A stretch of DNA of 64,000 nt. It comes from an uncultured Vicinamibacterales bacterium (GTDB lineage: Bacteria; Acidobacteriota; Vicinamibacteria; Vicinamibacterales; UBA8438). Both the position numbers and the translations under genes were made by a program. Under the pieces are notes generated by a model. That model did no database searches. It was not told where the DNA came from and saw only the letters and a program-made list of their open reading frames with translations. The DNA lies in the NCBI GenBank assembly GCA_958295905.1, contig OY282382.1, positions 2,318,001 through 2,382,000 on the forward strand, read 5' to 3'. Below are positions 19,247-44,269 of the stretch, one piece after another. The first letter of the stretch is position 1. Every line of letters starts with the position of its first letter.

Positions 19247-19672
19247 TCAGTCCGCTTCATCGGCCAGGAATTCGTACACGCTGGACATGACGCGATCGAT
19301 ATCCCGCAACTCGCACTCCCATATCGTCAGGACCCGCCAGCCCGACTGCTCGAGCGCCGTGGTGCTGTTGCGGTCACGCAGCCGGGTGGCCGCCAGCTTC
19401 GGCTTCCAGAAGCCGACGTTGGATTTGGGCAGGCCGGCTATCGGGCACCGCGGATCGGGATGCCAATGCCAGAAGCAACCGTGCACGAAGATCACGGCGC
19501 GGCGGCCCGGCAACACCAAGTCGGGCGTACCCGGCAGGTTCGGGCGGTGCAGCCGAAACCGATAACCCATCCGGTGCACAATGGACCGGACGATACGCTC
19601 CGGCTTCATGTGGCGGGACCGAATCCGCGACATGCACCTGGACCGGTCGACCGCACTCAAGTTGTCGGCCAT
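19247..19672 (-). CDS. vsr: very short patch repair endonuclease (Vsr)
   Basis: 141 residues starting MADNLSAVDRSRCMSRIRSR. The catalytic residues fall at the same positions as in E. coli Vsr: Asp51 (GTPDLVLP), His64 and His69 (FVHGCFWHWH). Cys66, His71, Cys76 and Cys120 are candidates for the structural zinc site. Vsr nicks beside T:G mismatches that arise when 5-methylcytosine deaminates, so its partner here is the C5-cytosine methylase two genes upstream. The matching residue numbers support the ATG at 19672 over the in-frame ATG 135 bases upstream. It lies 177 bases after the helicase-nuclease stop (19850), and the HEPN-like gene follows 23 bases later. Confidence 0.92.
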   Translation of the reverse strand: MADNLSAVDRSRCMSRIRSRHMKPERIVRSIVHRMGYRFRLHRPNLPGTPDLVLPGRRAVIFVHGCFWHWHPDPRCPIAGLPKSNVGFWKPKLAATRLRDRNSTTALEQSGWRVLTIWECELRDIDRVMSSVYEFLADEAD

Positions 19673-19849
19673 CGTTCGGTCCGTCCGAGCAAGCCGGTTG
19701 TCCCCCGAGAACGTCGTCTCCGCAATGTCCGTCGGGCGGGCGCCACGGCGCCGAGCCCGAGTCGTCGATACCATGAGTCGAGTCTCGATCTCCTTGCGCG
19801 AGAGCAACCGGGGCCGGGTTGCGCGTCGGCGAAGAACGCACGAGCCGCG

Positions 19850-22783: not shown

Positions 22784-23901
22784 GTCGCCACCCCCGCCGT
22801 GGCGCGCAGGCGGCGGAGCATCCGCGCCTGCGGCGCGACGAACCCGGGCGGAATCGCATTGCCGACCATCTCCGCCGCGGCGTACTTGCCGCGGCGCAGA
22901 GAGACGCGGTGATTGCTTGGGAACCCTTGCAGCAAGAGAGCCTCGCGGACGGTGATCGCCCGATCTTCCTCAGGGTGCAGGAACCGTCCCTTGCTGGGAT
23001 TGATGCAGCCCCCCGTGATTGTCGGAGCCGGGCGGTCCCACGCCATCCGTGCGTAGATGTTGCGTCCCCAGCCGTGCCCGTGCCGTGCTGCGCGGCGGTG
23101 GCATTCGAGTTGTTCGTCGTCCGGAAGGTCGGCCCGGCTGCCGCCGTCTCTGCGAATCGCGGCGATGACGGCGCGCACGCGCTCGGCGCGCTGTTCGCCG
23201 TGGTCGTGCAACGGGTCTCCTGAGCGCCCCGCGCTACGGGCGAGCCCGCCGATGGCGTCACGCACGGTCCGCCCCTCTGCGCCGCCCCCGGCGAGAGTCG
23301 GCTTCCCGCGGCGGGCGGCGACGAACACCAGGCGGCGCCGTTGCTGCGGCGTCCCGAAATCGGCGGTGTCCAGCACACCGCAATCGTAGAGCATGCCGCA
23401 GGCCGTGATACCCTCGGTGAACGCCCTGAACAAATCGTCGGTGCCAAGTCCCGGAACGTTCTCCATCAGCACGAGACGCGGCCGGATTTCCCGAACCAGC
23501 CGCAGGAAGTCAAGGACAAGGGTGTTGCGGTCGTCGTGCAGGGCCTCCCGGCGCCGGGTTCGAATCGCCGAGAACCCCTGACAGGGCGGGCACCCGGCGA
23601 GCAGATCCAGTTCGCCCTCACGCAAACCGGCGGCCCGCAGCAACCCGGACGCCGTGCCGGGGTCGCGCACATCGCCCGGGATGACCGGCACGCGCGGAAA
23701 ATTCATGCGGTAGCTCTCCACCGCAAGCGGCAGGACGTCAATCGCGGCGGCCACACGAAAACGCGCCTGCCGCAGTCCGAGGCTCAGCCCCCCCGCCCCG
23801 CAGAACACGTCGATGGCCGTGGGCCAGCGCCGGCCCGCTCCCGCCGCATGCTTCAGCCGCACATCCGCCTCCGCACAGTCCGCCGCCGACCGTTCGTCCA
23901 T
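22780..23901 (-). CDS. C5-cytosine DNA methyltransferase (DrmMII/Dcm type)
   Basis: 373 residues with the ordered C5-methylase motifs: I, DVFCGAGGLSLG (31-42); IV, GCPPCQGFS with catalytic Cys107; VI, ENVPG; VIII, QQRRRRL; and X, GNAIPP near the C-terminus. In DISARM a C5 methylase (DrmMII) marks host DNA in class 2 loci. Here it sits with Vsr and the helicase-nuclease, inside an island whose other genes are of class 1. It could alternatively be a solitary Dcm-like methylase with its own Vsr. It overlaps the downstream helicase gene by four bases and lies 114 bases after the broken adenine methylase gene. Confidence 0.92.
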   Translation of the reverse strand: MDERSAADCAEADVRLKHAAGAGRRWPTAIDVFCGAGGLSLGLRQARFRVAAAIDVLPLAVESYRMNFPRVPVIPGDVRDPGTASGLLRAAGLREGELDLLAGCPPCQGFSAIRTRRREALHDDRNTLVLDFLRLVREIRPRLVLMENVPGLGTDDLFRAFTEGITACGMLYDCGVLDTADFGTPQQRRRLVFVAARRGKPTLAGGGAEGRTVRDAIGGLARSAGRSGDPLHDHGEQRAERVRAVIAAIRRDGGSRADLPDDEQLECHRRAARHGHGWGRNIYARMAWDRPAPTITGGCINPSKGRFLHPEEDRAITVREALLLQGFPSNHRVSLRRGKYAAAEMVGNAIPPGFVAPQARMLRRLRATAGVAT

Positions 23902-24015
23902 CCTTCCGACCCCGGTATTGTACGGTCTAAGATGCGTAGCGCGCTCGTCGGCCGGAGACCGGCGAGGCGCCTTCGGGGCCGACGTGCCGCCCGTCGAGGG
24001 GGACTTGGCGGCCGG

Positions 24016-27000
24016 TCAGTCATCGGACGCCCCCCAGAGCGGACGCGGCTCGGCCGCGTGCGGGGCGTCGGATGGGCGGCGTACCGCACGGCGCGGTGAC
24101 CGGTCGGTCTTCTGCCGCGCGGCCGACGCGGCCGTCCCGGCGCGGGCTTCCGCGGCGGCGCGCTGCGCGTTGAGCTCCAGCAGGCGGGCGAGGACCTCGT
24201 CGCGGACTGCATCCGGCCAGCGGTAGCGGTACGGCTTCTTGCGGGCGCCCCATTCATCTTCGTCGATCTCGTGGTCGAGCAGGAACTCGCAGTCGGTCGG
24301 GACGTCGCGCCAGCCGTAGGCGTCGAGGACGGCGCGGTCCATGGCCGCGTGCAGGCGGCGGAGGGTGGCGACGTCGGGGTCGTTCCCGCCAGGGTCGTGG
24401 AAGCGGTTGCAGGTCTTGGTCAGCCCTTCGTTGTTCTCGAGCATCAGCGCGGCGCGGAAATCATGGTACGCCTTGCCGGCGGCTTCGAGGCCGGGGTGGG
24501 TCTCCCAGTGCTCGGGGAACGGGAACGTCTCGAAGCAGTCGGAGGGGGTATAGCGGAGGCGGTCTTCCAGGGACGAGCCGAAGAAGCGCGCCCAGATTTC
24601 GTGGGGGCGGGACTGAAGGATGCAGAAGTTGGCGTAGTCGGAGAACGGGAACACGATGGTCGAGTCGGCGTACACCCGGCGTTCGCCGCCAGCCGCGCGG
24701 GATCGTCGTGGCCGCCCCGGTGGAAGAGAAACGCGGTGATCGTGTCCGCCGCGGCGCCGTCGAGGCGGCGCGGCCCGGCGCAGCCCCCCTTTCGCACGTG
24801 GACGACGCTCACCACTACCGCCGCCTGCCCGGGCCACGGGCGCCGTCGGCGGGCGTGGTAGACCTCGCCGCCGTGCGTGCAGATCCAGCGGAGGCCGGTA
24901 GCGCGGGTGTCGCCCTGCGCGATGGTGTTGGTGGCGATCAGGCCGAACGCGCCCCCGCGGCGCAGGAGGGTGAACGTCCGCCGGAAGAAGTGGGCCACGA
25001 GGTCGGCGTTGCCGTGGCTCTCCTCGTGCGCCGCCTTGAGCCAGTCGGGGTAGCCGGCGGGGTTGCCCGCGGCCACGGTGTTCTTCCCCGCGAACGGCGG
25101 ATTGCCCACGACGGCGTCGAACCCCGGGTCTTGCCGCTCGAACACCTCGGGAAACTCGATCTCCCAGTGGAACGGGGCCAGCGGCGGGTCGCCGCGCCGA
25201 AGCTCTTCCGTCCAGCTTCCGTACCGCGCCATCCCGCCGCGCTGCACCGCGTCTGCGAAACGCCGGCGGTGCTCCTCGCGCGGCTTCGGCTTGCCGCCCT
25301 CGAAGAATGCCGCCACGGCGAGATCGCCGAGCAGGCGGACGTTGCGCGCTTCGAACCTGGACTCGTCCCACCGATCGCGCAGTTCGCGGTCGGTGATGGT
25401 CTCGTCCGCTTCACGGATGCGCCGGCGGAGGGCGCTCGCGCGGGCTAGGAGTCTGCGCCGCAGAACGGTTTTGGGTCCGATTTGGCACAATATGTAGCGG
25501 TCAATCGTCAGAGCTTGCGCAACATATGGTGGTCATAATTTCCTGCGGCGCAGACTCCTAGGTGCTCCATCCCCTGTATCGCCTCGAACCCCGGCTGGAA
25601 CTCGGGCGCGTCGGCCTTCCAGTGGAAGGTCTCGATCTGCCGGCGCGAGAGGCCGACGAGGGAATCGCCGTGGCGCAGGGCGTGGTCGAGGAAGGTGAAC
25701 GACTCGTTCCTGGCGAGGGTCGCCAGCCAGAGCGACAGCTTGGCGAGGTCGACCGCCACGGGGTTGCGGTCGACGCCGTAGAGGCAGCGTTGCGCGATCA
25801 GGCGGCGCGCGGCGACCACTTCGTCTTCGGCCGTCGCGGGGCGGGGCCGCGCGGGGTGGGCGCGCCGCGCCTCGACGAGCGCGTCGCCGAGCTGGCGGCA
25901 GGCTTCGACGAGGAACGCGCCGGAACCCATGGCGGGGTCGCAGACCTTCAGGTCGAGAATCTGCTCGGGCAGGAGCCGCGTGCGGGGCGACGGCGCGCCC
26001 GAGCCGGCCGCATCGGCGGATTCGGCCCGCAGACGGTCGAGGACCGGCGCGAGCGCCTCGCGCACGATCGGCTCGGTGAGGGCGCGGGGGGTGTAGTGCG
26101 AACCGGTGCGCCGGCGCTCCGGGCTCGGCTGCAGCACCAGCGCGCCCGCCGGCACGAGGTCCGGCGTCGCGTTCCGGTCGATGACGGGATCGAGGGCGGC
26201 GTGCAGGTCTTCAAGGGTCCGGGCGGCCTGCGCCGCCCGCTTCACGTTGTCGGTCAGCCGGCGGTCGGTGCGGTCCTGGACCCACTTCGCGCGGCGGGCC
26301 GGCGTCTCGTCGAGCAGCTCGTCGAGGCTCAGCGTCGCCGGCGCGCCGTGCTTCTTCCCCGCCTTGACGGCCACCGAGCGGCCGGTCGCGGTCTCCAGCC
26401 GGAAGCCCATCATCGTCTCGTAGACGGAACCGATCTGCTCGACGTCGAGGGCGCGGTACGAGATGCGCTCGCCGCCGAGGACGAGCAGCTTGTCGAGCAC
26501 GCGGTAGATCGTGCCGTCGGGCACGAGGGGGGGCTCGATGCGCTCGTGGATCTGGCGCGCCCGGCCGCCGGCGCGGCCCTCCAGGAACGGATGGCGGTCG
26601 GGGTCGAACAGGTCGCCGCGGCGGGGCGGCAGCGTCAGCCCGCCCGCCGCGGCGCCGTCGTGGACGATGCGGAACAGGGCGAGGAGCTGCGCCCAGGCGC
26701 CGTACCGCTGATCCATCGTATCGGGGTGGAGCGCGGCGTCTTCGCGCAGGCGCTCGTACAGGGCGGCGGGCGCGTAGGCGCGCCGGAAGGTCTCGTCGTC
26801 GGGCAGCATGTCGCGCTGCTCGGCGTAGAGGAGGAAGACGAGCCGCAGCAAGACCGCGAGGAGCGCGCGGTAGATCTCGTCGGGGCGGTCGGCGAGCGGC
26901 TCGCGCAGCAGCGCCCCGTGCGAGGCGTCGTGGGCGGCCTGGAGGCCGCGCAGCAGCTCGTAGAGGGCGTGCAGCACCTGTTCGGCCAAGCGCTCGCCGA

Positions 27001-27793
27001 CGTCGTTCTGGTGCCGGCGGCTGTCCGCGAGCAGGGCCGCGAGGCGCTTCCCGCGCGGCACGCTCAGCAGCCGCGTCTGGCCGAGCAGCAGACGGAGCGC
27101 CGCCGCGATCGGCCGGCCCGAGGTCTCCAGCATGTCGGCCACGCGGAAATCGAGCCAGCCCGAGCTCTCGCCGCGCGGGGCGGAGACCAGACGCAGGGCG
27201 ACGCCGTTGAACAGCAGGCCGGCCGGGACCCCGGTATGGCGCAGCAGGCGCTCCAGGCGGCCGTGGGGCGAGGCGTCGAGACCGCCGGAAGCGCGGGCCG
27301 CGCGGTCGAAGTCTTCGCCGGCGCCGCACGCGCAGACGAGAAGCTGCCAGTCGGGAGAGCCGGCGGGCGCGCCGTGCGCGGGCGCGGATTCGCGCGCCGC
27401 GGCGGCCGGGGCGGGTTGCGGCGCGTTCCGCACCGGTTCCGACCGCACCGCGAAATCGGGGCGCAGCACGGCGCCGGCCTCGGGGAGCGCGGCTTCGAGT
27501 TCGGGCGGGACCGGCGCTTCGTCGGTGCCGGCGTAGGCGCGCGGCGAGAAGTTCCAGTCGAGCACGGACGCCGCGAAGGCGCGGAAGTCCGGCAGCCAAG
27601 GCGCGGGCGCGACCCCCGGTTCGACTCTGCGTTCCTCGACGCAGGCGCGGAGCCGCTGTTGTCCCTCGGTGTCCCGCCGGTTCAGGATCGCCCCCGCGCT
27701 CACCAGGGCCGGCGCAGACACCACGAGGCCGGTGGGCCGGACGAAGCCCAGCCATTCGAGGTGCGCGGCGACGTGCGGGTCGTGTTTCGCCAT
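24016..27793 (-). pseudogene. drmMI: Eco57I-class N6-adenine methyltransferase (DrmMI type), split by a miniature element and a frameshift
   Basis: The first segment (27793-25562) holds an N-terminal region and methylase motif I, CDPAMGSGAF. The second (25444-24680) holds the catalytic motif GNPPF (25092-25106). A third (24680-24016), in another frame, holds the target-recognition and C-terminal part (RVYADSTIVFPFSDYANF). Segment one is ended by a stop inside the inserted element at 25445-25561. Deleting 113 bp there would restore the frame as ...GMEHLARASALRRR. A second break near 24680 needs one extra base in a GGG run (AANAG / RVYADS). DrmMI is the adenine methylase of class 1 DISARM and protects host DNA. 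As it stands motif I and NPPF are on separate polypeptides. Its start lies 12 bases after the drmD stop, so the two form an operon. Confidence 0.85.
25445..25561. mobile_element. 113-bp MITE-like element inserted in the adenine methylase gene
   Basis: The ends are 18-base inverted repeats (TAGGAGTCTGCGCCGCAG and its complement), and CTAG occurs at both borders as a probable 4-bp target duplication. The interior is AT-richer than its surroundings (GGCACAATATGTAGCGG, then CAACATATGGTGGTC). A second copy, identical in the interior apart from a few bases, lies at 38012-38128. Precise loss of 113 bp rejoins the methylase reading frame, which shows that this is a recent insertion. It has no gene of its own, so it must be mobilised in trans, if at all. 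Confidence 0.88.
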
Positions 27794-27805
27794 CGGTTCC
27801 CGGCG

Positions 27806-30800
27806 TCAGTTGGTCTCCGGCCACAGGTAGACGAGGCCGACCGGCTCGACGCGCCGCGCGCGGACCTCGTAGAACGCGCGGATACGGTCGGGCTCGCGAT
27901 CGAGGTCCTGGTCGAACTGCGTCAGACGCAGTTTCCAGGCCCGCACGTCGGCTTCAAGCTGCCGCTGCTCCTCGGGGCTGAACGCCAGCGCCATCTGCCC
28001 GCCGCCTTCGTCGTGCCGCCGCAGCTCGTCGCGGACGCGCGTGCGCTGGCGCTCGAGGGTCTCGCGCAGGCTCCGGGCCTCCTGTCCGCCGCGCCGCCGG
28101 AGCTTGTCGACGGCGGCGTCGGCCAGCTCCGCGGCGCGCGGTTCGAGCTGCGGCAGGAGTTCCTTGATGTCGCCGGGGGCGGATGCGAGCAGGCGGCGCC
28201 GCACCGTCTCCGGCGGCGCGCCGGGACGGCCGAGCGACCGGTCCAGCAGGTCCAGCGTTCTCGCTTCGGCCTCGCGGGCGTACGCCTTGAGCGGGCCCGA
28301 GCGCCTCGCCGGCTCGGTCCAGCGCGCCGCGACGGGCACGATCTCTTCGTGCAGCCGCTCGGCCCCGCGCCCGTACAGCGCCAGCCGGCCGAGCAGGATC
28401 ACGCGGGGGATGGCGTCCGCCGCCTGGGCGAGACAGGCCCGCGACAGGTCATGGTGGACGAAGCCCTGGGCGCGGAACCGGGCGAGCAGGCGTTGCGCCA
28501 CGCGCTGCCCCAGATGCAGATGGACGGTGTCGTCGCCGAGCACGCCCGGGTCGTCGAAGACGACGGGGCGGATGGGCGCGTCGCGGCGCCAGTCGGCGAG
28601 CTTCTGATCGGTTTTGCGCGGCGCGCGCAGCGTGTCCAGCGTGGCCGTCCAGCTCGGATCGGCCGCCGCCCGGCGGTCGAGCGGCGGGAAGGTCCAGACC
28701 GGGTTGCCGTGCCGGTCCGGTCCGGGCCGGAGCGGGTCTGCGCCGAGCAGATCGAGCGAGCAGGAAAGCGCGTCGCGGAACGGCGCCGCCTCGAACCCCA
28801 CCCACTTTCGGGACCGGTCCAGGAGCTCGCGGCAGCGTTCGACCTGCTCGTGCAGGGCGTCTTGCCGCCCGCGCGCGGCTTCGAGCTCGTCTTCGGCAAG
28901 ACGCCGGCGTTCGGCGTCGACGTCCGCGGCGTCGATCTCTCGGGCGAGCCGTTCGGCGTCGCGGTGGCGGATGCCGCCGGCGTTGAGACGGCGTTCGACG
29001 TCGTCGTCGATCACCTTCGAGAGGCTGCCCAGTTCGGTCTTGATCGTCTCGGTCTTGCGGACGAGCACCTCGAGTACCCGGTCTTCGGCGCGCTGGGGCA
29101 GGACGAAGTAGTGGCAGCGCACCTCGGGCGCGGGCTGGAGCTTGCGGTCGATGCGGCCGTTGCGCTGCTCGATGCGGCCGGGGTTCCAGGGCAGGTCGAA
29201 GTGGAACAGGTCCGTGCAGTGGGCCTGGAAGTTCAGCCCTTCTCGGGCGGCGTCGGTGGCGAGCAGGATGCGCAGCGGATCGCGTGCCGGATCGGCGTTG
29301 AAGCGGCGCTGGATCTCCCGGCGGCGGGCGCCCCCGGTCAGACCGTCTATCGTCTCGATTCGTTCCTCGGCGCGGTCCGTGCCTTCGACGGCCTGTTCGA
29401 GAACGTCCCGCAGATAGCGTTTCGTGCCCCGGCGGTTCTCGGTGAAGATGAGCACCCGCCGGTCGTGCCAGCGGGGCGGCGCGCCGGCGGGGGAATCGCC
29501 GAACGGCGGCAGGCCGGGGCAGAGGTTCGCCCGGATCCAGTCGATCAGGCGGCGGGTCTTGGCGTCGGGCAGGCATCGGGACCGGTCGGCTGTCTGCTGC
29601 ATCCGGTCGAGAAGCCGCCGCTCGCGTTCGGGCAGGGGCGCATCGCCGGCGGACGGGGTTGCGGTTTCGGCCGCGCGGGTCAGCGCCGCGATCCGTTCGT
29701 TCTCTTCGGCCTCGATCTCCCCGTCGTCCCACGCGCCGCGCTCGTCGTCGGCGTCCGGCGGCGTCAGGAACGGGTCGTCCGGCTTGCCGCCGGTCGGTGA
29801 TTCTTCGGTTGGAGGGCCGCCGGCCCGCGGCCTGCGGTCTGCCGCCCTGTCGGGGCCTCCTCCGCCGCCCGCCGCCCGCCACTGCCGCTCCACCGTCGCC
29901 CGGTGCGCCGTCAGGCTGCGCGCGAACGCCTCGATGGACGAGAGCAGACGCTGCTGCAAGCCGACCACGAGCAGGCCGGCGGCGGCGCGCGCCCGGCCGG
30001 ACGCGCTTCGGTGGCGCTGTTCACGCGCCGTACGGTACTCGTCGAGCAGGCGCGACAGGACCAACTCCGGCGCGTCGTCCGGCAGGCCGGCGATCTTGAT
30101 GCGCTCGATCACCCGCCGGGGGAACCCGTCCTGAAACTGACGGACGTCCTCCTTGAGCCGGCGGACCATGACGTCGTCGAGCGCTCTCCGGCCGCGCACC
30201 TTGACGCCGCGGGTGAAGCGGTAGGGGTCGAGCAGTTCGAGCAACGTCGAAAAGCTGTTCGAGTGGCCGTTGTGCGGGGTGGCCGAGAGGAAGAGCCGGT
30301 GCTCGAAGCGTCCGCCGAGGTCGCGCATGGCCCGGGTGAACTTCGTCTCGATGCCGTAGCGCCCGCCGCTCGACGGCGCGGCGTGGTGGGCTTCGTCGAG
30401 GATCAGCAGGCTGCCGGGCCGCATCGGGCCGAGCCACTCGCGCAGCGGGTCGGCGTAGGCGGCGTCGACGAGCAGGTTGTGCGAGACGAGGAACCGGCTG
30501 TGGGTGCGCCAGGGGTTGACGCCGAAGCCGCGCTCGCGGCGCATCCGCGAGACGTACCCGCGGTCGAGCAGCTCGAAGACCAGTCCGAACCGTTCGTCCA
30601 GCTCGCTCTTCCACTGTTCGAGCACGGACGGCGGGGCGGCGACGACAATCACGTTGACCTTGCGGCGCAGCAGCAGCTCGCGGGCGATCAGCCCCGCCTC
30701 GATGGTCTTGCCCAGACCGGTGTCGTCGGCGATGAACAGGTTGACCCGCGGCAGCCGCAGCGCCTTGCGCAGCGGTTCCATCTGGTAGGCGTCGATCCTG

Positions 30801-31153
30801 ATGCCGGCGCGGAACGGCGCCTGGAACAGATGCGGATCGGTCGCGGTGGTGCAGTGCCAGCGCAGCGTATGGAAGAAAGCGGCGAACCGGCGCGGCGGAT
30901 CGAAGCCGCGGGAAGCGAGATCCGCCCAGTCCTCGGCGGCGGCGATCCGGCGGTCCGGCTCGTGGTTCCAGAAGATCTCCAGCCACTGCCCCGGGGCGTC
31001 GTCGTCGGCGCAGGCCAAGCGCACCCGCGGCGATTCGCCGGGGACAGCCGAGTCGACGACCTCCTCGACGAGCCACCGCCGCGAGCGGACCTGGACGAGT
31101 TCGCCCACGCGCGGCGCCCGTTCGGGGAGTGTCGCGGCCAAGGGAGCGTTCAT
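27806..31153 (-). CDS. drmD: DISARM SNF2-family helicase DrmD
   Basis: 1115 residues. The SNF2/RapA-like ATPase core has Walker A ADDTGLGKTIEAG (GLGKT 146-150), DEAH at 253-256 (LILDEAHHAA), SATPHNG, and the second lobe with ATDAAREGLN and motif VI IEQRNGRIDRK. A low-complexity charged linker lies between the lobes. The C-terminal third is helical with coiled-coil character. Family size and order (drmD then drmMI) match class 1 DISARM. No Shine-Dalgarno is obvious before the ATG at 31153; the first 100 bp including the start are duplicated upstream (ATG at 31253), so the leader has been remodelled. It is the first gene of the island. Confidence 0.88.
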   Translation of the reverse strand: MNAPLAATLPERAPRVGELVQVRSRRWLVEEVVDSAVPGESPRVRLACADDDAPGQWLEIFWNHEPDRRIAAAEDWADLASRGFDPPRRFAAFFHTLRWHCTTATDPHLFQAPFRAGIRIDAYQMEPLRKALRLPRVNLFIADDTGLGKTIEAGLIARELLLRRKVNVIVVAAPPSVLEQWKSELDERFGLVFELLDRGYVSRMRRERGFGVNPWRTHSRFLVSHNLLVDAAYADPLREWLGPMRPGSLLILDEAHHAAPSSGGRYGIETKFTRAMRDLGGRFEHRLFLSATPHNGHSNSFSTLLELLDPYRFTRGVKVRGRRALDDVMVRRLKEDVRQFQDGFPRRVIERIKIAGLPDDAPELVLSRLLDEYRTAREQRHRSASGRARAAAGLLVVGLQQRLLSSIEAFARSLTAHRATVERQWRAAGGGGGPDRAADRRPRAGGPPTEESPTGGKPDDPFLTPPDADDERGAWDDGEIEAEENERIAALTRAAETATPSAGDAPLPERERRLLDRMQQTADRSRCLPDAKTRRLIDWIRANLCPGLPPFGDSPAGAPPRWHDRRVLIFTENRRGTKRYLRDVLEQAVEGTDRAEERIETIDGLTGGARRREIQRRFNADPARDPLRILLATDAAREGLNFQAHCTDLFHFDLPWNPGRIEQRNGRIDRKLQPAPEVRCHYFVLPQRAEDRVLEVLVRKTETIKTELGSLSKVIDDDVERRLNAGGIRHRDAERLAREIDAADVDAERRRLAEDELEAARGRQDALHEQVERCRELLDRSRKWVGFEAAPFRDALSCSLDLLGADPLRPGPDRHGNPVWTFPPLDRRAAADPSWTATLDTLRAPRKTDQKLADWRRDAPIRPVVFDDPGVLGDDTVHLHLGQRVAQRLLARFRAQGFVHHDLSRACLAQAADAIPRVILLGRLALYGRGAERLHEEIVPVAARWTEPARRSGPLKAYAREAEARTLDLLDRSLGRPGAPPETVRRRLLASAPGDIKELLPQLEPRAAELADAAVDKLRRRGGQEARSLRETLERQRTRVRDELRRHDEGGGQMALAFSPEEQRQLEADVRAWKLRLTQFDQDLDREPDRIRAFYEVRARRVEPVGLVYLWPETN

Positions 31154-36413: not shown

Positions 36414-37871
36414 ATGTCGGCTCCGATCACCGCGCCGCTGGCGAGGCGAAGCTGTAGCGGCTTGCCGCCAATCAGAGACCTGCCCGTGTTCGAGACCGTG
36501 GACTTCGCAAAGCTCCGGGATGAACTCGACCCCGTGACCTCGGGGTACGAGGCGGGTCAGCAGGACCTGCCGCCGCTCGAAGCCGACAACGACCCGCATG
36601 AGCGTTCGATTGCGGAGGCGATGGAAGGTCTCCTGAGAAGGGCCCATTCGTTCGTCTCCGATCATCTGGAGCAGGCGCACAAGCACTTCGGAGAGATCCA
36701 CGACACCGACTGGAGCGGCGGCATCAACCGGGCCGAGAGAAGAGCATTAGCCCGTTTCGATCAGGTCGAGGGCATGCGGAGCCCCGAGCTCCATCACAAA
36801 CGCGTCGAAGCCGACAAGCGCGTGAAAGACCTCGCGAAGTTCCGCGCGGCCAACCGGCTGTCCCGATCACCGGACTACCCGGACAGCGGTTTGAGCGTAT
36901 TCCAGTGGGGACTGGTGGTGTTCCTGTTCGTCTGCGAGAGCATCGCCAATTCGGCGTTTCTGGCCAAAGGCAACGAACTCGGTCTGGTCGGCGCCTCCAC
37001 CGTCGCATTCGGCATCAGCTTGGCCAATCTTCTGCCGCCGTTCCTCTTCTTCGGTCCCATCAGCCGCAACTTCGTCCACCGGAACGTTTGGCGGCGCGCG
37101 CTCGCGGGCGCGTGCACGAGCGCCTACGGCGTGGTCGCCTTCATCCTGAACCTGGGCGTCGCTCACTATCGCGAAGTCTCGGGCGAGCTGATGGGCGACG
37201 CCGGCGTCGAAGTGGTCCGCCGCATGACCGAGGCGCCCTTCAGCCTCCAGGACGCCCAGTCCTGGCTCTTGTTCCTCCTCGGGATCATTTTCTCGCTGGT
37301 GGCTTTCGCCGACGGCTGGAAGCGCGACGACGCCTATCCCGGATACGGCAAGCTGGATCGCATCGAACGCAAGGCGCGTGATGCGCATTTCGCTGCGCGG
37401 AACGATGCCAGCGAGGAGCTGGCCGAGATTCGGGAGGAAGCCCTCGACGAGATCAAGCGTATCGCGCACGAGGCCGAGAGGCAGCCCAGGGAACGCCTGA
37501 GAATCGTCGAGGACTGCGAGCGGTGGATCGAGAAGTTCGACGGCTACGTCGATCGACTCCAGAGGGGCGGCGCGGGGCTGATCGACGAATATCGGGCGGC
37601 GAATCGCAAGGCCCGCTCGGACGGCGGCGTCCCACGATGTCACACAAGCCCTTGGCGTCTGTCGCGCCCCAGGGTCGACAATCCGCTGAGCGGTGCCCGC
37701 GTGGATCCGCTGACGGAGAAACGACTCCGGGAAATCCAGAACGATGACCAACGGGCGACGAATCGGATTTACCAGCACTGCGACGCCGTGCGAACCCGTC
37801 TCTTCGGATCGACTGCTCCACAACCCGTACCGGGGGGCCACGCCGCCGCCGTGCCGGAATCCTCCGGCTAG
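36414..37871 (+). CDS. membrane cluster gene A: 4-TM protein with flanking coiled coils
   Basis: 485 residues from the ATG at 36414. A GTG at 36486 (VFETVDFAKLRDELD) is an equally plausible start because the first 24 codons lie in repeat sequence. An N-terminal soluble helical region (to about 165) leads to four predicted membrane segments, around FQWGLVVFLFVCESIA, STVAFGISLANLLPPFLFF, TSAYGVVAFILNLGVA and SWLLFLLGIIFSLVAFA. A highly charged helical C-terminal part (RKARDAHFAARNDASEELAE onward) probably forms a coiled coil. I recognise no family. It lies on the same strand as genes B-D and is separated from B by a spacer holding a copy of the miniature element. Confidence 0.75.
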   Translation: MSAPITAPLARRSCSGLPPIRDLPVFETVDFAKLRDELDPVTSGYEAGQQDLPPLEADNDPHERSIAEAMEGLLRRAHSFVSDHLEQAHKHFGEIHDTDWSGGINRAERRALARFDQVEGMRSPELHHKRVEADKRVKDLAKFRAANRLSRSPDYPDSGLSVFQWGLVVFLFVCESIANSAFLAKGNELGLVGASTVAFGISLANLLPPFLFFGPISRNFVHRNVWRRALAGACTSAYGVVAFILNLGVAHYREVSGELMGDAGVEVVRRMTEAPFSLQDAQSWLLFLLGIIFSLVAFADGWKRDDAYPGYGKLDRIERKARDAHFAARNDASEELAEIREEALDEIKRIAHEAERQPRERLRIVEDCERWIEKFDGYVDRLQRGGAGLIDEYRAANRKARSDGGVPRCHTSPWRLSRPRVDNPLSGARVDPLTEKRLREIQNDDQRATNRIYQHCDAVRTRLFGSTAPQPVPGGHAAAVPESSG

Positions 37872-38382
37872 TGCTTCGCCACGACTAAAAATAGGGTCTC
37901 CGGGCACTCACCTCGAACCGCAAGAGTCCTATGCAGAAGAAATACGTCGTTCGATCAAGTCCGTATATCCGAAACTTATGACGTGACGGACTACTAGCGG
38001 GCTGGGAGTCTCTGGGAGTCTGCGCCGCAGAACGGTTTTGGGTCCGATTTGGCACAATATGTAGCGGTCAATCGCCAGAGTTTGCGCAACATATGGTGGT
38101 CACAATTTCCTGCGACGCAGACTCCTAGCGAGCCTCCGCCTCGGACCCGACGAGACATGCAGGGTCGGGCGTGATCGCTGCTGCGCGGCCAATGGCTGTC
38201 GGAGACGTGGCAGCGGCGAAATAAACGATCAGAACCTGAACTCGACTCAACTGTAAGTAACGATCCCGGCGGCTCAAGGAGTCTGGTCGCGTCACCGCCC
38301 AAGTGCGGATCACGCGGGAAAGCGCTGGTACGGAGATTCGTTGCAGGCCGGAGCTGGCTTGCCCGAGAGACTGAACCAAGGC
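37872..38382. other. spacer between membrane genes A and B
   Basis: It contains the second copy of the MITE-like element (38012-38128). The rest shows nothing coding; the area is AT-richer (TACTTACAGTTGAGT on the minus strand at about 38250-38260) than the neighbouring genes. Confidence 0.55.
38012..38128. mobile_element. second copy of the 113-bp MITE-like element
   Basis: Starts CTGGGAGTCTGCGCCGCAG and ends CTGCGACGCAGACTCCTAG. It differs from the copy at 25445-25561 by only a few bases, one of them in the left border CTAG (here CTGG) and one in the right inverted repeat. A short duplicate of its left end (GGGAGTCT) lies just outside. It is intergenic here and is not known to disrupt a gene. 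Confidence 0.85.
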
Positions 38383-39237
38383 ATGGCGACACGCAGCCGG
38401 CGCGGAACGTCGCGAAGACCCCGATTCGGACGGAAGGGGCCGGCATGGAGCTGGCCGGCGGCGGCTGGCGTCGCGCTGGCCATCATCGCGTTCGCCTTGG
38501 TGGCCGCGCTGGTGCTGTTGCGACCCGAAACCGTGCCCCGCGATCCCGAGACGCTGTGTCCCGAGGCTGGCCCGAGCCGGGTCACCGCGATCCTGTTGGA
38601 CACGACGGACCGTGTCGGGCCGACGAGCCGCGCCGACATCCTCGCCCGGCTCGACGACCTCGTGGCGTCGAGCCGGGCGGACGAGATGATGGTCGCCTAC
38701 GAGACGTCAAGGATCGCCCGCGACGGCACGCTGTTTCCACCGAAGCTCACCGTCTGCAACCCCGGGGACCCGGACGCCGCCAACCCGCTGATCTCGAATC
38801 CGGAGCTCATCCGCCGGCGGCTCGAGGAGGGCTTCAGAAGGCCGCTCGACATGCTGTTTCGGGAGCTTCTGGACCGGAACCGGGCCGATGTTTCCCCGTT
38901 GCTGGAGAATGTGCAGGCGATTGCCGTGACCCTGTTCGCACGCCGCGTGCACGCGGAGACGCCGAAACGGTTGATCGTCGTTTCCGACCTGATGCAGCAC
39001 TCCCAGCACCTGTCGCTCTACCGCGGGCGGCTCGATTACGACGCCTTCGACCGCACCGTCGGGGCTGACGCCCTGCGCACGAATTTGCGGGACGTCGAGA
39101 TCGAGGTGCTGTTCGTGCGGCGGCGCGAGCACGATCGGTTCGACGGCGTGCGGAGCCTGATCGATTTCTGGGAACGCTGGTTCGAGGCGCAGGGCGGGCG
39201 GCTGGAGCGCGCGTCCCGGATCGACGGACTGAACTGA
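38383..39237 (+). CDS. membrane cluster gene B: single-TM protein with possible vWA-like domain
   Basis: 284 residues from the ATG at 38383; an in-frame TTG lies 42 bases upstream. A basic N-terminus is followed by one membrane segment (WPAAAGVALAIIAFALVAAL, about 23-45). The rest is a periplasmic or cytoplasmic domain with alternating strands and helices: VTAILLDTTDRVGP near the start and RLIVVSDLMQHSQHLS near the end. The DTTD acidic cluster and the strand order recall a von Willebrand A-type fold, but this is an inference. Its stop overlaps the ATG of gene C by one base (TGATG), so B and C are coupled. Confidence 0.75.
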   Translation: MATRSRRGTSRRPRFGRKGPAWSWPAAAGVALAIIAFALVAALVLLRPETVPRDPETLCPEAGPSRVTAILLDTTDRVGPTSRADILARLDDLVASSRADEMMVAYETSRIARDGTLFPPKLTVCNPGDPDAANPLISNPELIRRRLEEGFRRPLDMLFRELLDRNRADVSPLLENVQAIAVTLFARRVHAETPKRLIVVSDLMQHSQHLSLYRGRLDYDAFDRTVGADALRTNLRDVEIEVLFVRRREHDRFDGVRSLIDFWERWFEAQGGRLERASRIDGLN

Positions 39238-39845
39238 TGGGCGGCGGGTTCGCGCGGGACGGCTGGTGGTCGCCGGAAAGAGACCGCTGGATCTTCTTCG
39301 GGTTCTTCACGATCGGTGCCGTCTTCATCCTGGTGTTGAAGACCGCGGTTGGCAACCAGATCGCCGTCACCGTGTTGCCGTGTCTGTTCATGCTGTTCTA
39401 CGCAGGTCTCCAATGGGACATCGGCGAATGGGAACCGAAACCTGACGCCAACGGCGACAATCTGTACTACCTCGGGTTCCTCTACACCCTGACCAGCCTC
39501 GGCCATGCGCTCTACCGGTTCAGCACGGAACAGGAAGACACGGAGGTCATCGTCACCAACTTCGGTATCGCCATCTCCACGACCATCCTGGGCATGGCGC
39601 TGCGCATCCTTCTCGGCCGCCCGGGATTCGACGATCCGCCCGCGGTCGAGACCTCGGCGCGCAGGGACCTCGCCAGCGCCGCCCGGAGGCTCCGGGCCGA
39701 GCTGGAGTACAGCGCCGCGGACTTCCAAGGCTTCCGCGCGGAGCTGGAACAGGACTTCAGGAACTTCCGTGAGCGACTGGCGCAGGACGCCGACATGGCG
39801 CATGCCGTCGTCGCGAAGACGCTCGATCGCGCGCTGGGCCTAGAG

Positions 39846-42276
39846 CTGCCCTTGCCCCAGATCTCTCCGGCTGAAAGATCACCCGTATTCGTCCCTCAGT
39901 TCGAAGGCGAAGACCATGGCGGCGAGCTGGGTGTAGCCGTGCCACAGGAGTTGCGCGCCGGGCGGGGCGCGGCGGCGCCCGAGCCAGCCGCCGAGGCGCC
40001 CGACCAGTTCGACGGCGTCACCGAGGCGGGTCGGGGGCGGCAGCTGGCGCGAGTGGGCGAAGACCGCGAGCACACGCAACTCGTCGTCGGAGAACAGCAG
40101 GTCGCCCGGCAGGTCGGGCACCTCGCGCCCGAGCTGGACCATCAACTGGATCCGCCACCCGATGACCATCTTGATCGCCATGGCCCGTTCGAGCCGCTCG
40201 GCCTTGTGGTGCTGCAGCTCCTCGACCTTGCAGCCGGACTTGAGGACCCGGAAGTACTCTTCGATGCGCCAGCGCAGCGCATACCAGTGCAGGACCCGCA
40301 CGGCGTCGGCCGTGCCGGTCACGGGCAGCGTGGTCAGCACGAACCACTCCAGCGGCTTGACCCCGGGCGGCGGCTGTTCCTCGCGCGCATGGACGACGAA
40401 CAGGTTGACCGGCTTGGCGCCGGAGCACGGCAGCGCCACCGGCTGGTAGCGCAGGGTCACGTCGGCGTCGCGGGCCGCACGGCGGTCCTTGCGGGCCTGT
40501 TTACTGGCCTTCACCCGCGCGCTCAGCCGCCGCACCTCGACGGTGGCGGCGCCGCGGGCCGGCGCGTTGCGCACCTCCTCGAACAGGCGGCGGGAGACCG
40601 TCTGCCCGTCGGCGGTCTCCTCCTTGCCGAGGACCCGGTCGACCTTCGCGCGGACCAGCAGTTCGACCTGCGGGGCGTGCGTCCGGCGCTCGATGAACAG
40701 GTCCAGGAAGTCGGCCTCGCGGTCCATCGTGCACACCACGCGGGTCTCCGGCAGGCGTTCGGCCGCCGCCGCGCAGTCGCGCAGCCCCTCGACCCAGCGG
40801 AACGACTTCCGTTCCTCTCGCGGCTTCGGCTTGCCTTTCTCCCCGGGATTCCGGAACTCGGGCGCGTCGAACGCGGCCCGCAGGACGCCCAGGGACACCC
40901 CGTCGGGATTGACGGCCAGGGTCGTGTGCAACTCCAGGCCGCGGGCCACCGCGCCGGTCTGATTCGAGCCGAGGGCCCCCAGGCCCTCCGTCCGGCTGTG
41001 CCGGGTGAAGTTCAGGCTGGTGCCGTCCTGGATGCACAACACCGTGTCGTGCCCGCGCATCCGGCGCAGCGTGCGCCCGCGGTGGGGCTCGAGAATGTTC
41101 TCGACCGTCACCGCGCTTTCGGCGGGTTGGTCGATCAGCCGGTAATGGCCCTTGACCAAGGCTCTCAATCCGTTCGCGGCCCCGGTGATGGCGCGCATCG
41201 GAGACTCGGCCATCTGCTGCGCGCTCAGAACCAGGCGCGCGCTCCGGCGCGCGTCGCCCAGCCGCGCCCCGCCGAACTCGTGGCCCGCCCAGGACTCGGC
41301 GTCGAGCCCGTCGCCGACCGCGAGCGGCGACACGTCCGGCGGCGGCGACGCGAGGCGGGCGCGCGCCCCCGGCTCCAACGCATACATATACACGGCTTTG
41401 CGCGTTTCGGGGGCCGCGCAGGTGCGGTCCTGCCGTCCGCGCCCGCAGGTCTCACCCACCCGCATCCAGTTCGCCGCCCGCACGCTCGTGCCCGGATGTT
41501 CGGTCTCGTCGACGAACGTCTCCAGCAGCCAGGGCCGATAGCCGTGGAGGCGCTCGAAGTCGTCGCCGACCACCCGGGTGACCCGGCCCAGCACGTGGGA
41601 GGCCAAGTTGCGGCACGAGAGGCCGGGGCGCACCAGCAGCCGGCACAGTCCCAGCACCCGGTGCAGGTAGTCGCCCCGGCGCTTCTCGTCCCAGCCGATC
41701 CAGGCGTCGCGGGCCCGCAGGCGCCGCGCACTCGCGGCGAACCCGACGCCGCCCAGCCAGCCGTGCCCGGAACCCACCAGATACCGCAGTTGAGGGCCGA
41801 CAAAGGGTCCGGCGCCGCGCGGGTGCTCGTCCGCCATCAGCGTATTCCACACGCGGCGGTGTTCGTCGGTCTCCACCAGCACCAGGGTCAGTTCCCGAAC
41901 CTCATCGACCGTGCCGGGCACGTCCACGGCCGGCGCGACCGGGTGCGGGAGCACCCGCGGGCGGCGTCCACCGCCGCCCGCGGGGCGACCCGGCGGGAGC
42001 GCGACTTGGCCCGCCGCCTCGAGGGCGGCCAACGCCGAGGCGCAGCTCGCGCGCTGCCACCGGCCACGCCCATCGCGGAAATCGAACGCTTCACACACGC
42101 GGTCGGCGACCTGCCCGCGGCTGCCGATGCCCTGCGCCACCGCGCTCCCCAGCACATCGCGCAGGCGGGCGAGGTTGTCCCGCAGCCTCCGCATGACTTG
42201 ATTCTGAATCTTCATGCCCGCCACGGTAGCGAAGTGGCCTCATGAAGTCCAGTGAAAAGTTCTGGGGCAAGGGCAG
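39846..42276. mobile_element. IS4-family insertion sequence, 2431 bp
   Basis: Terminal inverted repeats begin CTGCCCTTGCCCCAGA at 39846 and end with its complement at 42276. Both sides are flanked by the 8-bp target duplication GCCTAGAG (39838-39845 and 42277-42284). A single transposase gene fills the element on the minus strand. Intact ends, intact target duplication and an intact transposase suggest a recent insertion into gene C. Confidence 0.95.
39879..42224 (-). CDS. IS4-family (Tn5-like) transposase with N-terminal DUF4338 (DruA-like) domain
   Basis: 781 residues. After a short N-terminal region, residues about 110-270 form a DUF4338 domain, the family of the Druantia protein DruA. 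It has LTLVLVETDEHRRVWNTLMA, ARDAWIGWDEKRR, RNLASHVLGR and VGETCGRGRQDR. The second half is a Tn5/IS4-type DDE transposase: an N-terminal subdomain with SPMRAITGAANGL, then CIQDGT (first Asp), CTMDREADF (second Asp) and the Y-(2)-R-(3)-E-(6)-K-like region WRIEEYFRVLKSGCK (Glu). Such fused proteins occur as stand-alone IS transposases. The DUF4338 part is probably the DNA-binding or targeting half. An internal ATG three codons later is an alternative start. Nothing suggests disruption. Confidence 0.9.
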   Translation of the reverse strand: MAGMKIQNQVMRRLRDNLARLRDVLGSAVAQGIGSRGQVADRVCEAFDFRDGRGRWQRASCASALAALEAAGQVALPPGRPAGGGGRRPRVLPHPVAPAVDVPGTVDEVRELTLVLVETDEHRRVWNTLMADEHPRGAGPFVGPQLRYLVGSGHGWLGGVGFAASARRLRARDAWIGWDEKRRGDYLHRVLGLCRLLVRPGLSCRNLASHVLGRVTRVVGDDFERLHGYRPWLLETFVDETEHPGTSVRAANWMRVGETCGRGRQDRTCAAPETRKAVYMYALEPGARARLASPPPDVSPLAVGDGLDAESWAGHEFGGARLGDARRSARLVLSAQQMAESPMRAITGAANGLRALVKGHYRLIDQPAESAVTVENILEPHRGRTLRRMRGHDTVLCIQDGTSLNFTRHSRTEGLGALGSNQTGAVARGLELHTTLAVNPDGVSLGVLRAAFDAPEFRNPGEKGKPKPREERKSFRWVEGLRDCAAAAERLPETRVVCTMDREADFLDLFIERRTHAPQVELLVRAKVDRVLGKEETADGQTVSRRLFEEVRNAPARGAATVEVRRLSARVKASKQARKDRRAARDADVTLRYQPVALPCSGAKPVNLFVVHAREEQPPPGVKPLEWFVLTTLPVTGTADAVRVLHWYALRWRIEEYFRVLKSGCKVEELQHHKAERLERAMAIKMVIGWRIQLMVQLGREVPDLPGDLLFSDDELRVLAVFAHSRQLPPPTRLGDAVELVGRLGGWLGRRRAPPGAQLLWHGYTQLAAMVFAFELRDEYG

Positions 42277-43186
42277 GCCTAGAGCGTGCCATCGAGAGCT
42301 TCGAAGTCGGAACCCGGATGGCGGTCGAGACCATCGTTGACCGGGCGGGGGAGCTGGAGCGGAGCGCCGCCGCCCTGACCGCGTTCGAGCAAGCCGTCGA
42401 TCGGCTCGACACTCGCACGACAGCCGCGGTGGAGGCTATCGGGGACCACTCGACCACACTGGCCGCGGGCGCCGCGCGGGTCGGCGAGTCGCTGGAGTCG
42501 CAGGCGGAACGGATGCGGGCCGTCGATTTCGGGCAGGCGCTGATTGACGCCGCCGGCCCCGCGTCGGCCCATCTGCAGGCCGCCGTCGAGCGCAGCGCCG
42601 CGCGGGTCGATACCCGCATCGACTCCCTGTTTGAGGACGCCGAGCGGCGCGCGAAGGAGCTGGAGGCGGGCGCCGGCGCCGTGCGCGACGCGTTGCGGTT
42701 GCAGGCGGAACGCATCGGAACCCTCGATTTCCCGAGGGCTTTCAGCGACGCCGTCCAGCCGGCGTCAGCCGAACTCCGCGCGGCGGCGGTCGAGTTCAGG
42801 GCGTTGCTGGACGGGTTGCGGCAGGCCGACGCGGCGCGCGAACAGGTGCGGGCCGCCAACGAGCGGGCGCTGGCCACGGCGAATGAGGTGCTGCGAGAGC
42901 AGGGAACCCTTGCCGCGGCGGTCGCTGCCGCGGCGAACGACTCGCGAGCTGCCGCCGAGTCGTTCCGTTCCGCCGGCGAACGGTTGGTTGGGGTCAACGA
43001 AGGCGCGGAGGACGCCGCGCGCCGGGCCGCCGGCGTACGCGACGAGTTCGCGCGGTCGGCGGAACGGCTGCGCGTGGTGAACGAAGAGCTGGCGCAGGTC
43101 TCGCAGGCGCTGGCATCCTGGGTCGCGGAGGCGCGGGAAGCTCTGGGGCGCCGGCCGCGCCGCTGGTGGTTCGCCCGTCGGAGGAA

Positions 43187-44269
43187 ATGATGCCGCATCG
43201 GGGGCAGACCTTCCCTCGCGGCCTCGTCTTGGGCCTCACGATGGCGGAGACGGCGATCCTCATCATCTTCGTGCTCCTCTTGGCCCTGACCGCGCTGCTC
43301 GATCGGGAAGCCGACCGGCGCCGCACGGCGGAGCAGGATCTTGAGCGGTTCGAAGAGATCCGACTGGTGCTTTCGGAGCGCGGTCTCGAACCGGCGGCGC
43401 TGTTGGAGACGATCCGGGCGCGCGAGGAAGACCGGAGCGCCGCGGACGACTGGCGCGAACTCGTCCGGGACCTGGGCCGCCAGATGCCCGACCCTTCCCC
43501 CGAAACGATCGCCTCGCGTCTGCGGGAGGCGGCCGATGCGCTGGAACGGGACGCCGCCCACCGGGCGCTCGACGAGGTGCTCGGCGCCGCCGGTGTCGAA
43601 CCCACGCGGGAGACATTGCAGGCACTCGCCGAGATCGCGGAGGCCAGGCAGGAAGCGGACCTGACGGTGGACGAGGTGCGGGACGCGATGGAAACGTACC
43701 CGGCGCTCGACGCGGCGCTTCGGAACCGCGGCGGCGAAACGACGCCGCGGGCGGTCGAGCGGATGGTCCGGGACGCGCAGCGCTGGCGCGATTACGCGGG
43801 CGAAGCGGACGTCGATCTGGCGGCCGAGCTCGGCCGCGCCAACCAGCGTGTCGAACGGCTGGAGGCGCAGGTGCAAGGCGGCGGAGGCACCGACCATCCG
43901 AGCTGTTGGTACGACGGCGACAACACCGTCGCGTACCTCTTCGACGTGGCGCTGACCGAGGTGGGCTACCTCCTCCAGCCCGCCCGCGCGCCGCAGCATG
44001 AGCGGGCGCGGGCGGCGCTGGGGGACGAACTCGCGCCGGTCCGCACCGGCCGCATGCTGACCCCGGCGCAGTTTCGGGAGCAGACGCGGCCGGTCTACGC
44101 ATGGAGCGTCGCCAACGACTGCCGATTCTTCGTCCGCGCGTTCGATGTGACCGCCGCCGATCAGAAGGAACTGTATAAGGATCGCATGCGTCTGTTGGAG
44201 TCGCGCTTCTACAAGTACGCGAATCCATCGGGACCGCCGCCCGAAGCCGGTTCCGCTCCGCGGCCTTGA
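43187..44269 (+). CDS. membrane cluster gene D: single-TM, MotB/ZorB-like partner with helical linker
   Basis: 360 residues; ATG at 43187 overlaps the C stop, and a second ATG at 43190 lies 5 bases after GGAGG. A short basic N-terminus is followed by one membrane helix, GLTMAETAILIIFVLLLALTAL (about 17-38). It contains a Glu near its start, where MotB/ExbD/ZorB-type proteins have an ion-binding acidic residue. A long charged helical region (40-230) leads to a compact C-terminal domain (SCWYDGDNTVAYLFDVALTEVGY ... NDCRFFVRAFDVT). No OmpA-like peptidoglycan-binding signature is seen. Position right after the MotA/TolQ-like gene C supports a stator-type pair (inference). The last codons are duplicated downstream. 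Confidence 0.75.
   Translation: MMPHRGQTFPRGLVLGLTMAETAILIIFVLLLALTALLDREADRRRTAEQDLERFEEIRLVLSERGLEPAALLETIRAREEDRSAADDWRELVRDLGRQMPDPSPETIASRLREAADALERDAAHRALDEVLGAAGVEPTRETLQALAEIAEARQEADLTVDEVRDAMETYPALDAALRNRGGETTPRAVERMVRDAQRWRDYAGEADVDLAAELGRANQRVERLEAQVQGGGGTDHPSCWYDGDNTVAYLFDVALTEVGYLLQPARAPQHERARAALGDELAPVRTGRMLTPAQFREQTRPVYAWSVANDCRFFVRAFDVTAADQKELYKDRMRLLESRFYKYANPSGPPPEAGSAPRP

What the first reader, a model, noticed from the sequence alone, without database searches (positions are those of the whole stretch)
36414..44269. Four-gene membrane cluster with a MotA/TolQ-like and MotB-like pair, a possible vWA-like protein and a coiled-coil membrane protein
Seen: gene A (4 TM with coiled coils), B (1 TM plus alpha/beta domain), C (4 TM, Thr-rich last helix, long helical tail) and D (1 TM with an acidic residue at its start, helical linker, compact end). 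B-C overlap by 1 base and C-D by 4 bases. Known: Zorya ZorA-ZorB are MotA/MotB-like stator proteins with a long ZorA tail. Inference: this may be a new ion-driven envelope system. It lies 5 kb from a DISARM island and carries none of the usual Zorya effectors (ZorC-E). I recognise no named family for A, B or D.
Basis: partly seen in the sequence, partly recalled or inferred. Interest (0 to 1): 0.78.

Follow-up and report, generated by a model that had tools for sequence, protein, structure and literature searches.

The report
Broken copy of nuclease-linked membrane motor
Four neighbouring bacterial genes, found together in many other bacteria, look like an ion-driven membrane machine that often comes with a DNA-cutting enzyme on the outer side of the inner membrane, perhaps to destroy invading DNA; the copy read here has been broken by a jumping gene.

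Summary
Relatives are intact: in 80 genome loci found with gene A, B is present in 80, C in 73, D in 71, and 68 have A-B-C-D in order on one strand. The same 24 plasmid records hold A, B and C. B has a confident von Willebrand A fold. D has one membrane helix with a conserved Glu, and in most relatives an OmpA/ZorB-type domain.

New here: 46 of 90 loci (two records counted twice) carry an exported staphylococcal-type nuclease (SNase), 45 of 46 within 1.3 kb of the operon. In four operons of one alphaproteobacterial family a nuclease domain is fused to the end of D predicted to be periplasmic: SNase twice, the unrelated GmrSD_C twice.

Best reading: a Zorya-like, ion-driven envelope machine with a swappable periplasmic nuclease, most likely a barrier against incoming DNA. 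The motor role of C (no profile reaches its cut-off) and the defence role (enrichment near defence genes not tested against a control) are inferred. It is not Zorya by membership. No library model reached its cut-off for A or B.

The parts
36414..37871 (+). Gene A: 485 aa, four hydrophobic segments between long hydrophilic N- and C-terminal parts (coiled coil likely, not computed); no library model at cut-off
   Evidence: alignments
37872..38382 (.). A-B spacer with two ~120-bp repeat families found dozens of times in the genome; in the loci tabulated the two genes are close together or overlap
   Evidence: 48 matches in own genome
38383..39237 (+). Gene B: one TM (N-in by charge), then a von Willebrand A domain predicted in the periplasm, with two invariant Cys (alternative start 38341)
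   Evidence: (pLDDT 89.6)
39237..39846 (+). Gene C, 5' piece: TM core with motifs GDNxYYxGFLxTLxSL and FGxAxxSTxxG, up to and including the first copy of the target duplication
39847..42275 (-). Insertion sequence in gene C; IS4/Tn5-type transposase with DruA-like N-terminus at 39879-42224 minus; five full-length copies in the genome (this one included) at 99-100%
42276..42285 (.). Second copy of the 10-bp target duplication GGCCTAGAGC (first copy 39837-39846)
42286..43190 (+). Gene C, 3' piece: long tail with coiled-coil-type matches, no TM
43187..44269 (+). Gene D: one TM with conserved Glu (LGLTMAE), variable linker, then a compact domain with two invariant Cys where most relatives have an OmpA domain (alternative start 43166)
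13805..31153 (-). DISARM-type island near the cluster (DrmA, UvrD-type helicase, DNA cytosine methylase, DrmMI in two pieces, DrmD); context, not part of the module

Best explanation
The cluster is a degraded copy of a widespread but unnamed four-gene envelope machine. C and D most likely form an ion-driven stator of the MotA-MotB/ZorA-ZorB kind (inferred). C supplies a multi-TM pore with conserved Thr/Ser and a long cytosolic tail. D supplies one helix with an acidic residue, here Glu where the known families have Asp, and a periplasmic anchor. A and B form an added membrane part whose vWA domain faces the periplasm and could sense or bind an envelope ligand or transmit force (inferred). In about half of the loci an exported nuclease lies next to the operon, and in some genomes a nuclease domain is fused to the end of D predicted to be periplasmic (shown as sequence). 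The nuclease is therefore most likely the output of the machine and acts in the periplasm (strong inference). The likeliest job is to cut phage or other foreign DNA while it crosses the envelope, with the motor gating or positioning the nuclease (inferred). In this genome C is broken by a recent insertion sequence and no SNase was found in the window, so this copy is probably inactive.
For: Module: of 80 genome loci found with A (best 80 kept of 111), B in 80, C in 73, D in 71, all four in 71, and 68 in order on one strand with gaps under 300 bp; in the other three one gene is split or shortened. The same 24 plasmid records hold A, B and C. A-B and A-D distances track each other (rho 0.88 and 0.90, 0 of 2000 permutations reach it; 18 loci). 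Nuclease: an SNase profile hits 46 of 90 non-window loci (two records are in the set twice, L003/L077 and L011/L082), 20 of 40 groups at 80% A identity; 45 of 46 lie within 1.3 kb although only 16.5% of the flanks searched lie that close. Placements differ: upstream + 10, upstream - 2, downstream + 6, downstream - 27, fused 1. By a crude hydropathy scan an export-type hydrophobic stretch precedes the nuclease motif in 45 of 46; the exception is the one fused to D. Fusions inside full A-B-C-D operons: D-SNase in L092 and L164, D-GmrSD_C in L162 and L163 (PF07510 at 50.1 and 47.6 bits, cut-off 23). D: Pfam OmpA in 22 of 27 relatives at E up to 0.01, best PADLOC ZorB1 model in 14 and ZorB2 model in 8 of 27; the D of L137 hits type II ZorB 8VVI at 9e-13 over the OmpA part. 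Glu at the TM position in 84 of the 84 D proteins that matched the motif, of 86. B: Foldseek E 2.6e-5, VIA Z 12.6 over 157 residues.
Against: C reaches no MotA/ZorA cut-off: 13.4 bits against 22.9 in the window, 5 of 27 relatives at E up to 2. hhalign of the C core against small TolQ/ExbB, MotA and ZorA sets found nothing (probability at most 1.2%), and the C core has no PDB relative. About half of the loci, the window included, show no nearby SNase. Five Latescibacterota/Gemmatimonadota loci have A-B without detectable C-D. Defence context is unproven: PADLOC on 144 neighbours from 25 loci gave mad3 in 7, mad8 in 4, AriA in 4 and GajA in 2 members among the 25 of 154 families shown, and no control set was run. 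In 12 Acidobacteriota loci the operon sits directly behind a PQQ-dependent dehydrogenase, and two Paracoccus plasmid contexts look metabolic. The SNase tree follows A only moderately (rho 0.47). No activity has been tested.
Confidence: 0.5

Rival explanations
1. An envelope-maintenance or force-transducing complex (Tol-Pal/TonB-like) in which the vWA protein pulls on or senses the outer membrane or peptidoglycan; the nuclease is a convenient neighbour that clears DNA from the periplasm.
For: vWA proteins next to TolQ/R-like motors were proposed as force transducers (PMC12204202, section 8 read). Most relatives have a peptidoglycan-type OmpA domain in D. Some contexts look metabolic.
Against: Two unrelated nuclease families are fused to D itself, which mere neighbourhood does not explain. 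Distribution is sporadic (13 of 396 genomes of the phylum, 2 of 211 genera), unlike a maintenance system.
Confidence: 0.2
2. A DNA uptake or DNA-scavenging machine: the exported nuclease trims extracellular DNA and the motor drives its uptake for nutrition.
For: Exported SNases sit next to a probable membrane motor; many plasmid hosts are rhizobia.
Against: No uptake partner stood out among the recurrent neighbour clusters; apart from the SNase these looked like ABC-transporter, SDR, LysR and SH3 proteins (named by eye). One ComEC-annotated gene lies about 6 kb away in one locus.
Confidence: 0.1
3. A surface- or entry-exclusion system carried by mobile elements to keep out competing plasmids and transforming DNA rather than phages.
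For: 24 plasmid records carry it, 11 of them predicted conjugative; relaxase genes lie near it in some.
Against: It is also found on MAG and chromosome-scale contigs in several phyla, and no transfer gene stood out among the recurrent neighbour clusters.
Confidence: 0.15

Closest known systems
Zorya anti-phage system (ZorA-ZorB with ZorC/D, ZorE, or ZorF/G)
   Same: A multi-TM subunit with a long helical tail encoded just before a one-TM subunit with an acidic helix residue and, in most relatives, a peptidoglycan-type periplasmic domain; a nuclease partner.
   Different: Two extra genes (A and vWA B); the nuclease is exported or fused to the predicted periplasmic end of D instead of cytosolic; Glu instead of Asp; C far below the ZorA cut-offs; no ZorC-G found. 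Two genomes of the phylum that carry the module (G315, G329) also carry separate ZorA-type genes.
MotA-MotB / TolQ-TolR / ExbB-ExbD motors
   Same: Topology, Thr/Ser motifs in the C helices, acidic residue in the D helix; D relatives match PomB/MotB chains in PDB through the OmpA domain.
   Different: No cut-off reached by C; the window D has no OmpA domain (its end domain resembles TolR/ExbD periplasmic domains only at VIA Z 4.4-5.3, tied with ribosomal proteins).
vWA force transducers beside TolQ/R-like motors (PMC12204202)
   Same: A membrane-tethered vWA protein encoded with a motor pair.
   Different: Those carry an SHLS helix motif or an Asp pore helix; B shows no SHLS, comes with a separate D, and a nuclease is linked.
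Secreted staphylococcal-type nucleases and GmrSD_C (DUF1524) nucleases
   Same: Pfam SNase or GmrSD_C over cut-off in the neighbouring or fused proteins tested.
   Different: Here tied to a membrane machine by operon neighbourhood or by fusion to its peptidoglycan subunit.

Membership tests
Zorya | ZorA at its curated profile cut-off | tested here: not met
   C tail: NF033914 13.1 bits against cut-off 190; C 5' piece: no NCBIfam hit. PADLOC ZorA in the window: tail only; in relatives best ZorA1 model 13 of 27, best E 5.3e-8, tail in the member shown
Zorya | ZorB-like subunit | tested here: inconclusive
   Relatives: ZorB1 14 of 27, ZorB2 8 of 27, 8VVI at 9e-13 for the D of L137, OmpA part. Window D: no ZorB hit
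Zorya | Conserved Asp in the ZorB membrane helix | tested here: not met
   Glu in all 84 that matched the motif, of 86 D proteins; of the two unmatched, L090 also reads AE, and the L036 frame lacks the start
Zorya | ZorC/D, ZorE or ZorF/G effector | tested here: not met
   None in the families shown for 25 window protein queries scanned with PADLOC; not every window ORF was scanned and long lists were cut at 25
MotA/TolQ/ExbB superfamily | PF01618 at gathering score (C) | tested here: inconclusive
   13.4 of 22.9 bits in the window; 5 of 27 relatives at E up to 2, best 0.01; hhalign negative with shallow alignments; decoy ranking undecided
MotA/MotB-type motor | 5:2 stoichiometry and ion-driven rotation | not testable with these tools
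   No multimer prediction or assay available
vWA domain (B) | vWA fold | tested here: met
   Model pLDDT 89.6; Foldseek best E 2.6e-5, prob 1.00, TM by query about 0.3-0.44; VIA Z 12.6, rmsd 3.5, 157 aligned
vWA domain (B) | Canonical MIDAS DxSxS | tested here: not met
   Motif reads DxTD or similar (D73, D76 invariant); no conserved Ser at the fifth position; MIDAS definition recalled
vWA force transducers (PMC12204202) | SHLS motif in the helix, or Asp pore helix without TolR/MotB partner | tested here: not met
   No SHLS in the ten aligned B helices read by eye; a separate D is present
SNase (PF00565) | Pfam cut-off in the partner nuclease | tested here: met
   5 of 5 partner proteins scanned, incl. 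the L092 fusion, 37-98 bits against cut-off 21
GmrSD_C (PF07510) | Pfam cut-off in the domain fused to D | tested here: met
   50.1 and 47.6 bits against 23, inside the D frames of two genomes

The most novel reading that the evidence does not exclude
A separate class of anti-invader machine: an ion-driven, peptidoglycan-anchored stator (C-D) with a vWA-bearing membrane module (A-B) that carries a swappable nuclease in the periplasm, so that foreign DNA is cut while crossing the envelope, before it reaches the cytosol.
Probability: 0.4. Interest if true: 0.92.

Novelty: new variant of a known kind. Interest (0 to 1): 0.78.

Why it matters
Known Zorya systems are described as signalling through the long cytosolic ZorA tail to effectors that act on phage DNA (PMC12409362, passage). 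Here motor-like parts come with two new components and with nucleases of two unrelated kinds on the predicted periplasmic side. If the motor and the defence role hold, this would be an immune motor acting on DNA during entry, and would make it testable whether ion-driven stators gate periplasmic enzymes. A and B are conserved in several phyla and reached no cut-off in the libraries searched.

Tried and rejected
C as MotA-type by sequence: Pfam below cut-off (no MotA_ExbB match at E up to 0.01 among the 22 families listed for 27 relatives), PDB with full C gave coiled coils including ZorA tails, PDB with the C core gave nothing, hhalign against small TolQ/ExbB, MotA and ZorA sets gave nothing. 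A decoy ranking favoured these families overall (Mann-Whitney 2e-5 and 7e-14), but the decoys were not matched for membrane content and decoys held most top ranks, so I do not count it.

A against PDB: nothing below E 0.3. B against PDB by sequence: nothing useful (best E 0.95); only the fold shows vWA. Weak NCBIfam hits of B (E 0.019, 14.8 of 100 bits) were not followed. Window D end domain: no Foldseek match at E 0.001 (model mean pLDDT 59.2, end domain about 80); VIA put TolR 5by4 (Z 5.3, rmsd 4.5, 94 aligned) and ExbD domains (Z 4.4-4.6) high, but tied with ribosomal proteins.

Phage origin: one viral-contig hit, apparently the same Faunimonas contig as L065 (same length). Defence-island test: one search scanned 144 of 162 selected neighbours (three loci dropped to fit the limit), no control set. 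SNase replaced by another recurrent gene in loci without it: no single candidate; L076 has an HSDR_N protein, L091 a GmrSD_C-type protein with a hydrophobic N-terminus 1.3 kb away.

Strict motif regexes for the SNase active site: 39, 44 and 30 of 46 for the three motifs, 27 of 46 all three; motifs recalled. Simple regexes for the two B motifs matched 71 and 38 of 91.

Literature: PMC12204202 (section 8 and passages), PMC11890865 and PMC12409362 (passages only), the other papers as search listings only. No paper describing the A-B-C-D module was seen in searches; most subscription papers are missing from that library.
Full report
What is in the window. Gene C is broken: a 2429-bp insertion sequence, 39847-42275, lies in it. 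It has matching terminal repeats and a 10-bp target duplication (8 bp under another cut), and its transposase reads on the minus strand (39879-42224; IS4/Tn5 type, NF033590 E 1.7e-90, with a DruA-like N-terminal domain). Joining the flanks gives an open frame of 504 aa, so the insertion is the visible lesion. The genome holds five full-length copies, this one included, at 99-100% identity, which suggests recent movement. A and B are separated by 469-511 bp of repeats found dozens of times in the genome, while in the loci tabulated they lie close together or overlap. This copy is probably inactive (inference).

The module is real and shared. tblastn with A, B and the C N-terminus each hit the same 24 plasmid records, all from alphaproteobacterial genera; D found none. 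Ten of these regions were fetched, nine with annotation; in all nine A, B, C and a fourth gene follow each other, and in six the fourth is annotated 'OmpA family protein'. A profile scan of one genome per species used one peptide pattern of A and gave 111 relatives, of which the best 80 were kept: mostly Acidobacteriota, Alphaproteobacteria and Latescibacterota, with one Gemmatimonadetes MAG and one MAG labelled Flavobacteriaceae. Of these 80, B is present in 80, C in 73, D in 71; all four in 71; 68 in order, same strand, gaps under 300 bp. In the other three, one gene is split or shortened. Of the nine without all four, four stop at a contig end (L015, L033, L049, L081) and five (Latescibacterota/Gemmatimonadetes: L026, L031, L032, L034, L037) show A-B only. 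In the window's own phylum 13 of 396 genomes carry A, in 2 of 211 genera. A, B and D diverge in step (rho 0.88-0.90, 18 loci).

What the parts are. B: AlphaFold model pLDDT 89.6, vWA fold by Foldseek (E 2.6e-5) and VIA (Z 12.6, rmsd 3.5, 157 aligned). One TM and +8 charge in the first 20 residues put the domain outside the inner membrane (inference); two Cys are invariant. The metal site is not canonical. D: one TM whose LGLTMAE-type motif keeps Glu in all 84 matched of 86, then in most relatives an OmpA domain (22 of 27) related to ZorB/MotB (8VVI is type II ZorAB). In 14 of the 86 D proteins, the window's and Acidobacteriota-type relatives, another domain with two invariant Cys stands there; its fold was not identified. 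C: TM core with invariant residues including T84, S87, T116 and G119 and a long tail. Its place among MotA/TolQ/ExbB proteins rests on topology, on the operon with D and on sub-threshold Pfam hits; hhalign did not confirm it. A: no model at cut-off in Pfam or NCBIfam, no PADLOC match, no PDB match.

The nuclease. Clustering the neighbours showed one family recurring most, a thermonuclease (17 of 41 groups); it is annotated beside the operon in six of the nine annotated plasmid regions. A profile search found it in 46 of 90 loci and 20 of 40 groups; 45 of 46 lie within 1.3 kb, though flanks commonly reach 10 kb. The 90 loci hold two records twice (L003/L077, L011/L082) and many close relatives, so the binomial value (2.5e-34) overstates the evidence; the group count and the different placements (upstream or downstream, either strand) speak more plainly. 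In 45 of 46 a hydrophobic, export-type stretch precedes the nuclease motif by a crude scan; the exception, L092, is fused to the C-terminus of D. A search of 394 genomes of that genome's family gave seven D genes with a C-type gene beside them in the stretches fetched; four carry a fused nuclease: SNase in L132 (the L092 gene itself) and L135/L164, GmrSD_C in L137/L162 and L138/L163; all four lie in full A-B-C-D operons. A fifth, L134/L165, has an SNase-like gene 64 bp behind D on the other strand. GmrSD_C (DUF1524) is known from type IV restriction enzymes (PMC12409362, passage). In that family stand-alone SNases are common (most of the 115 matching genomes), so presence alone means little; closeness and fusion do. 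The SNase distances follow A less closely (rho 0.47), as expected if it is exchanged. The window's genome has one SNase, about 2 Mb away.

Mechanism. Shown: conserved gene set, vWA fold (predicted model), OmpA/ZorB-type D in relatives, nucleases with export-type N-termini or fused to D. Inferred: a C-D ion-driven stator; A-B as sensor or transmitter; nuclease acting in the periplasm on entering DNA. Against: no cut-off reached by C, about half of the loci without an SNase nearby, defence context unproven (no control), metabolic-looking neighbours in places.

Known systems. It resembles Zorya in outline but is not a member by the curated ZorA model (13.1 of 190 bits), the Asp or the effectors; two genomes of the phylum that carry the module also have separate ZorA-type genes. 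The vWA-motor pairs proposed in PMC12204202 are a precedent for coupling vWA proteins to such motors, with different helix motifs. No model of Pfam (2025), NCBIfam (June 2026) or PADLOC (2023) reached a cut-off or matched for A or B. I file it as a new variant of a known kind and leave the bolder reading, a separate class that cuts DNA during entry, at 0.4.

Noticed in passing
39847-42275: Insertion sequence whose transposase couples a Druantia DruA-like domain to a Tn5-type transposase; five full-length copies at 99-100% in the genome.
   Followed up: partly
37872-38382: Two ~120-bp interspersed repeat families, dozens of copies genome-wide, between A and B.
   Followed up: partly
44618-46390 minus; L013-L016, L019-L025, L030: A PQQ-dependent dehydrogenase (named from its sequence, by recall) lies next to the operon here, and one at about 40% identity lies directly upstream of A in 12 Acidobacteriota loci.
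   Followed up: no
24016-27793 minus: DISARM DrmMI matches fall in two separate ORFs, so the methylase may be split or broken.
   Followed up: no
33724-34506: The gene upstream of A is 84% identical to one upstream of A in L018, so the two genomes share the site.
   Followed up: partly
L026, L031, L032, L034, L037: Latescibacterota/Gemmatimonadetes loci keep A-B without detectable C-D, in a shared gene context.
   Followed up: partly
L006:16348-17106 and similar proteins in L083, L087: A membrane or secreted SH3_3-type protein recurs beside the operon in some rhizobia.
   Followed up: no
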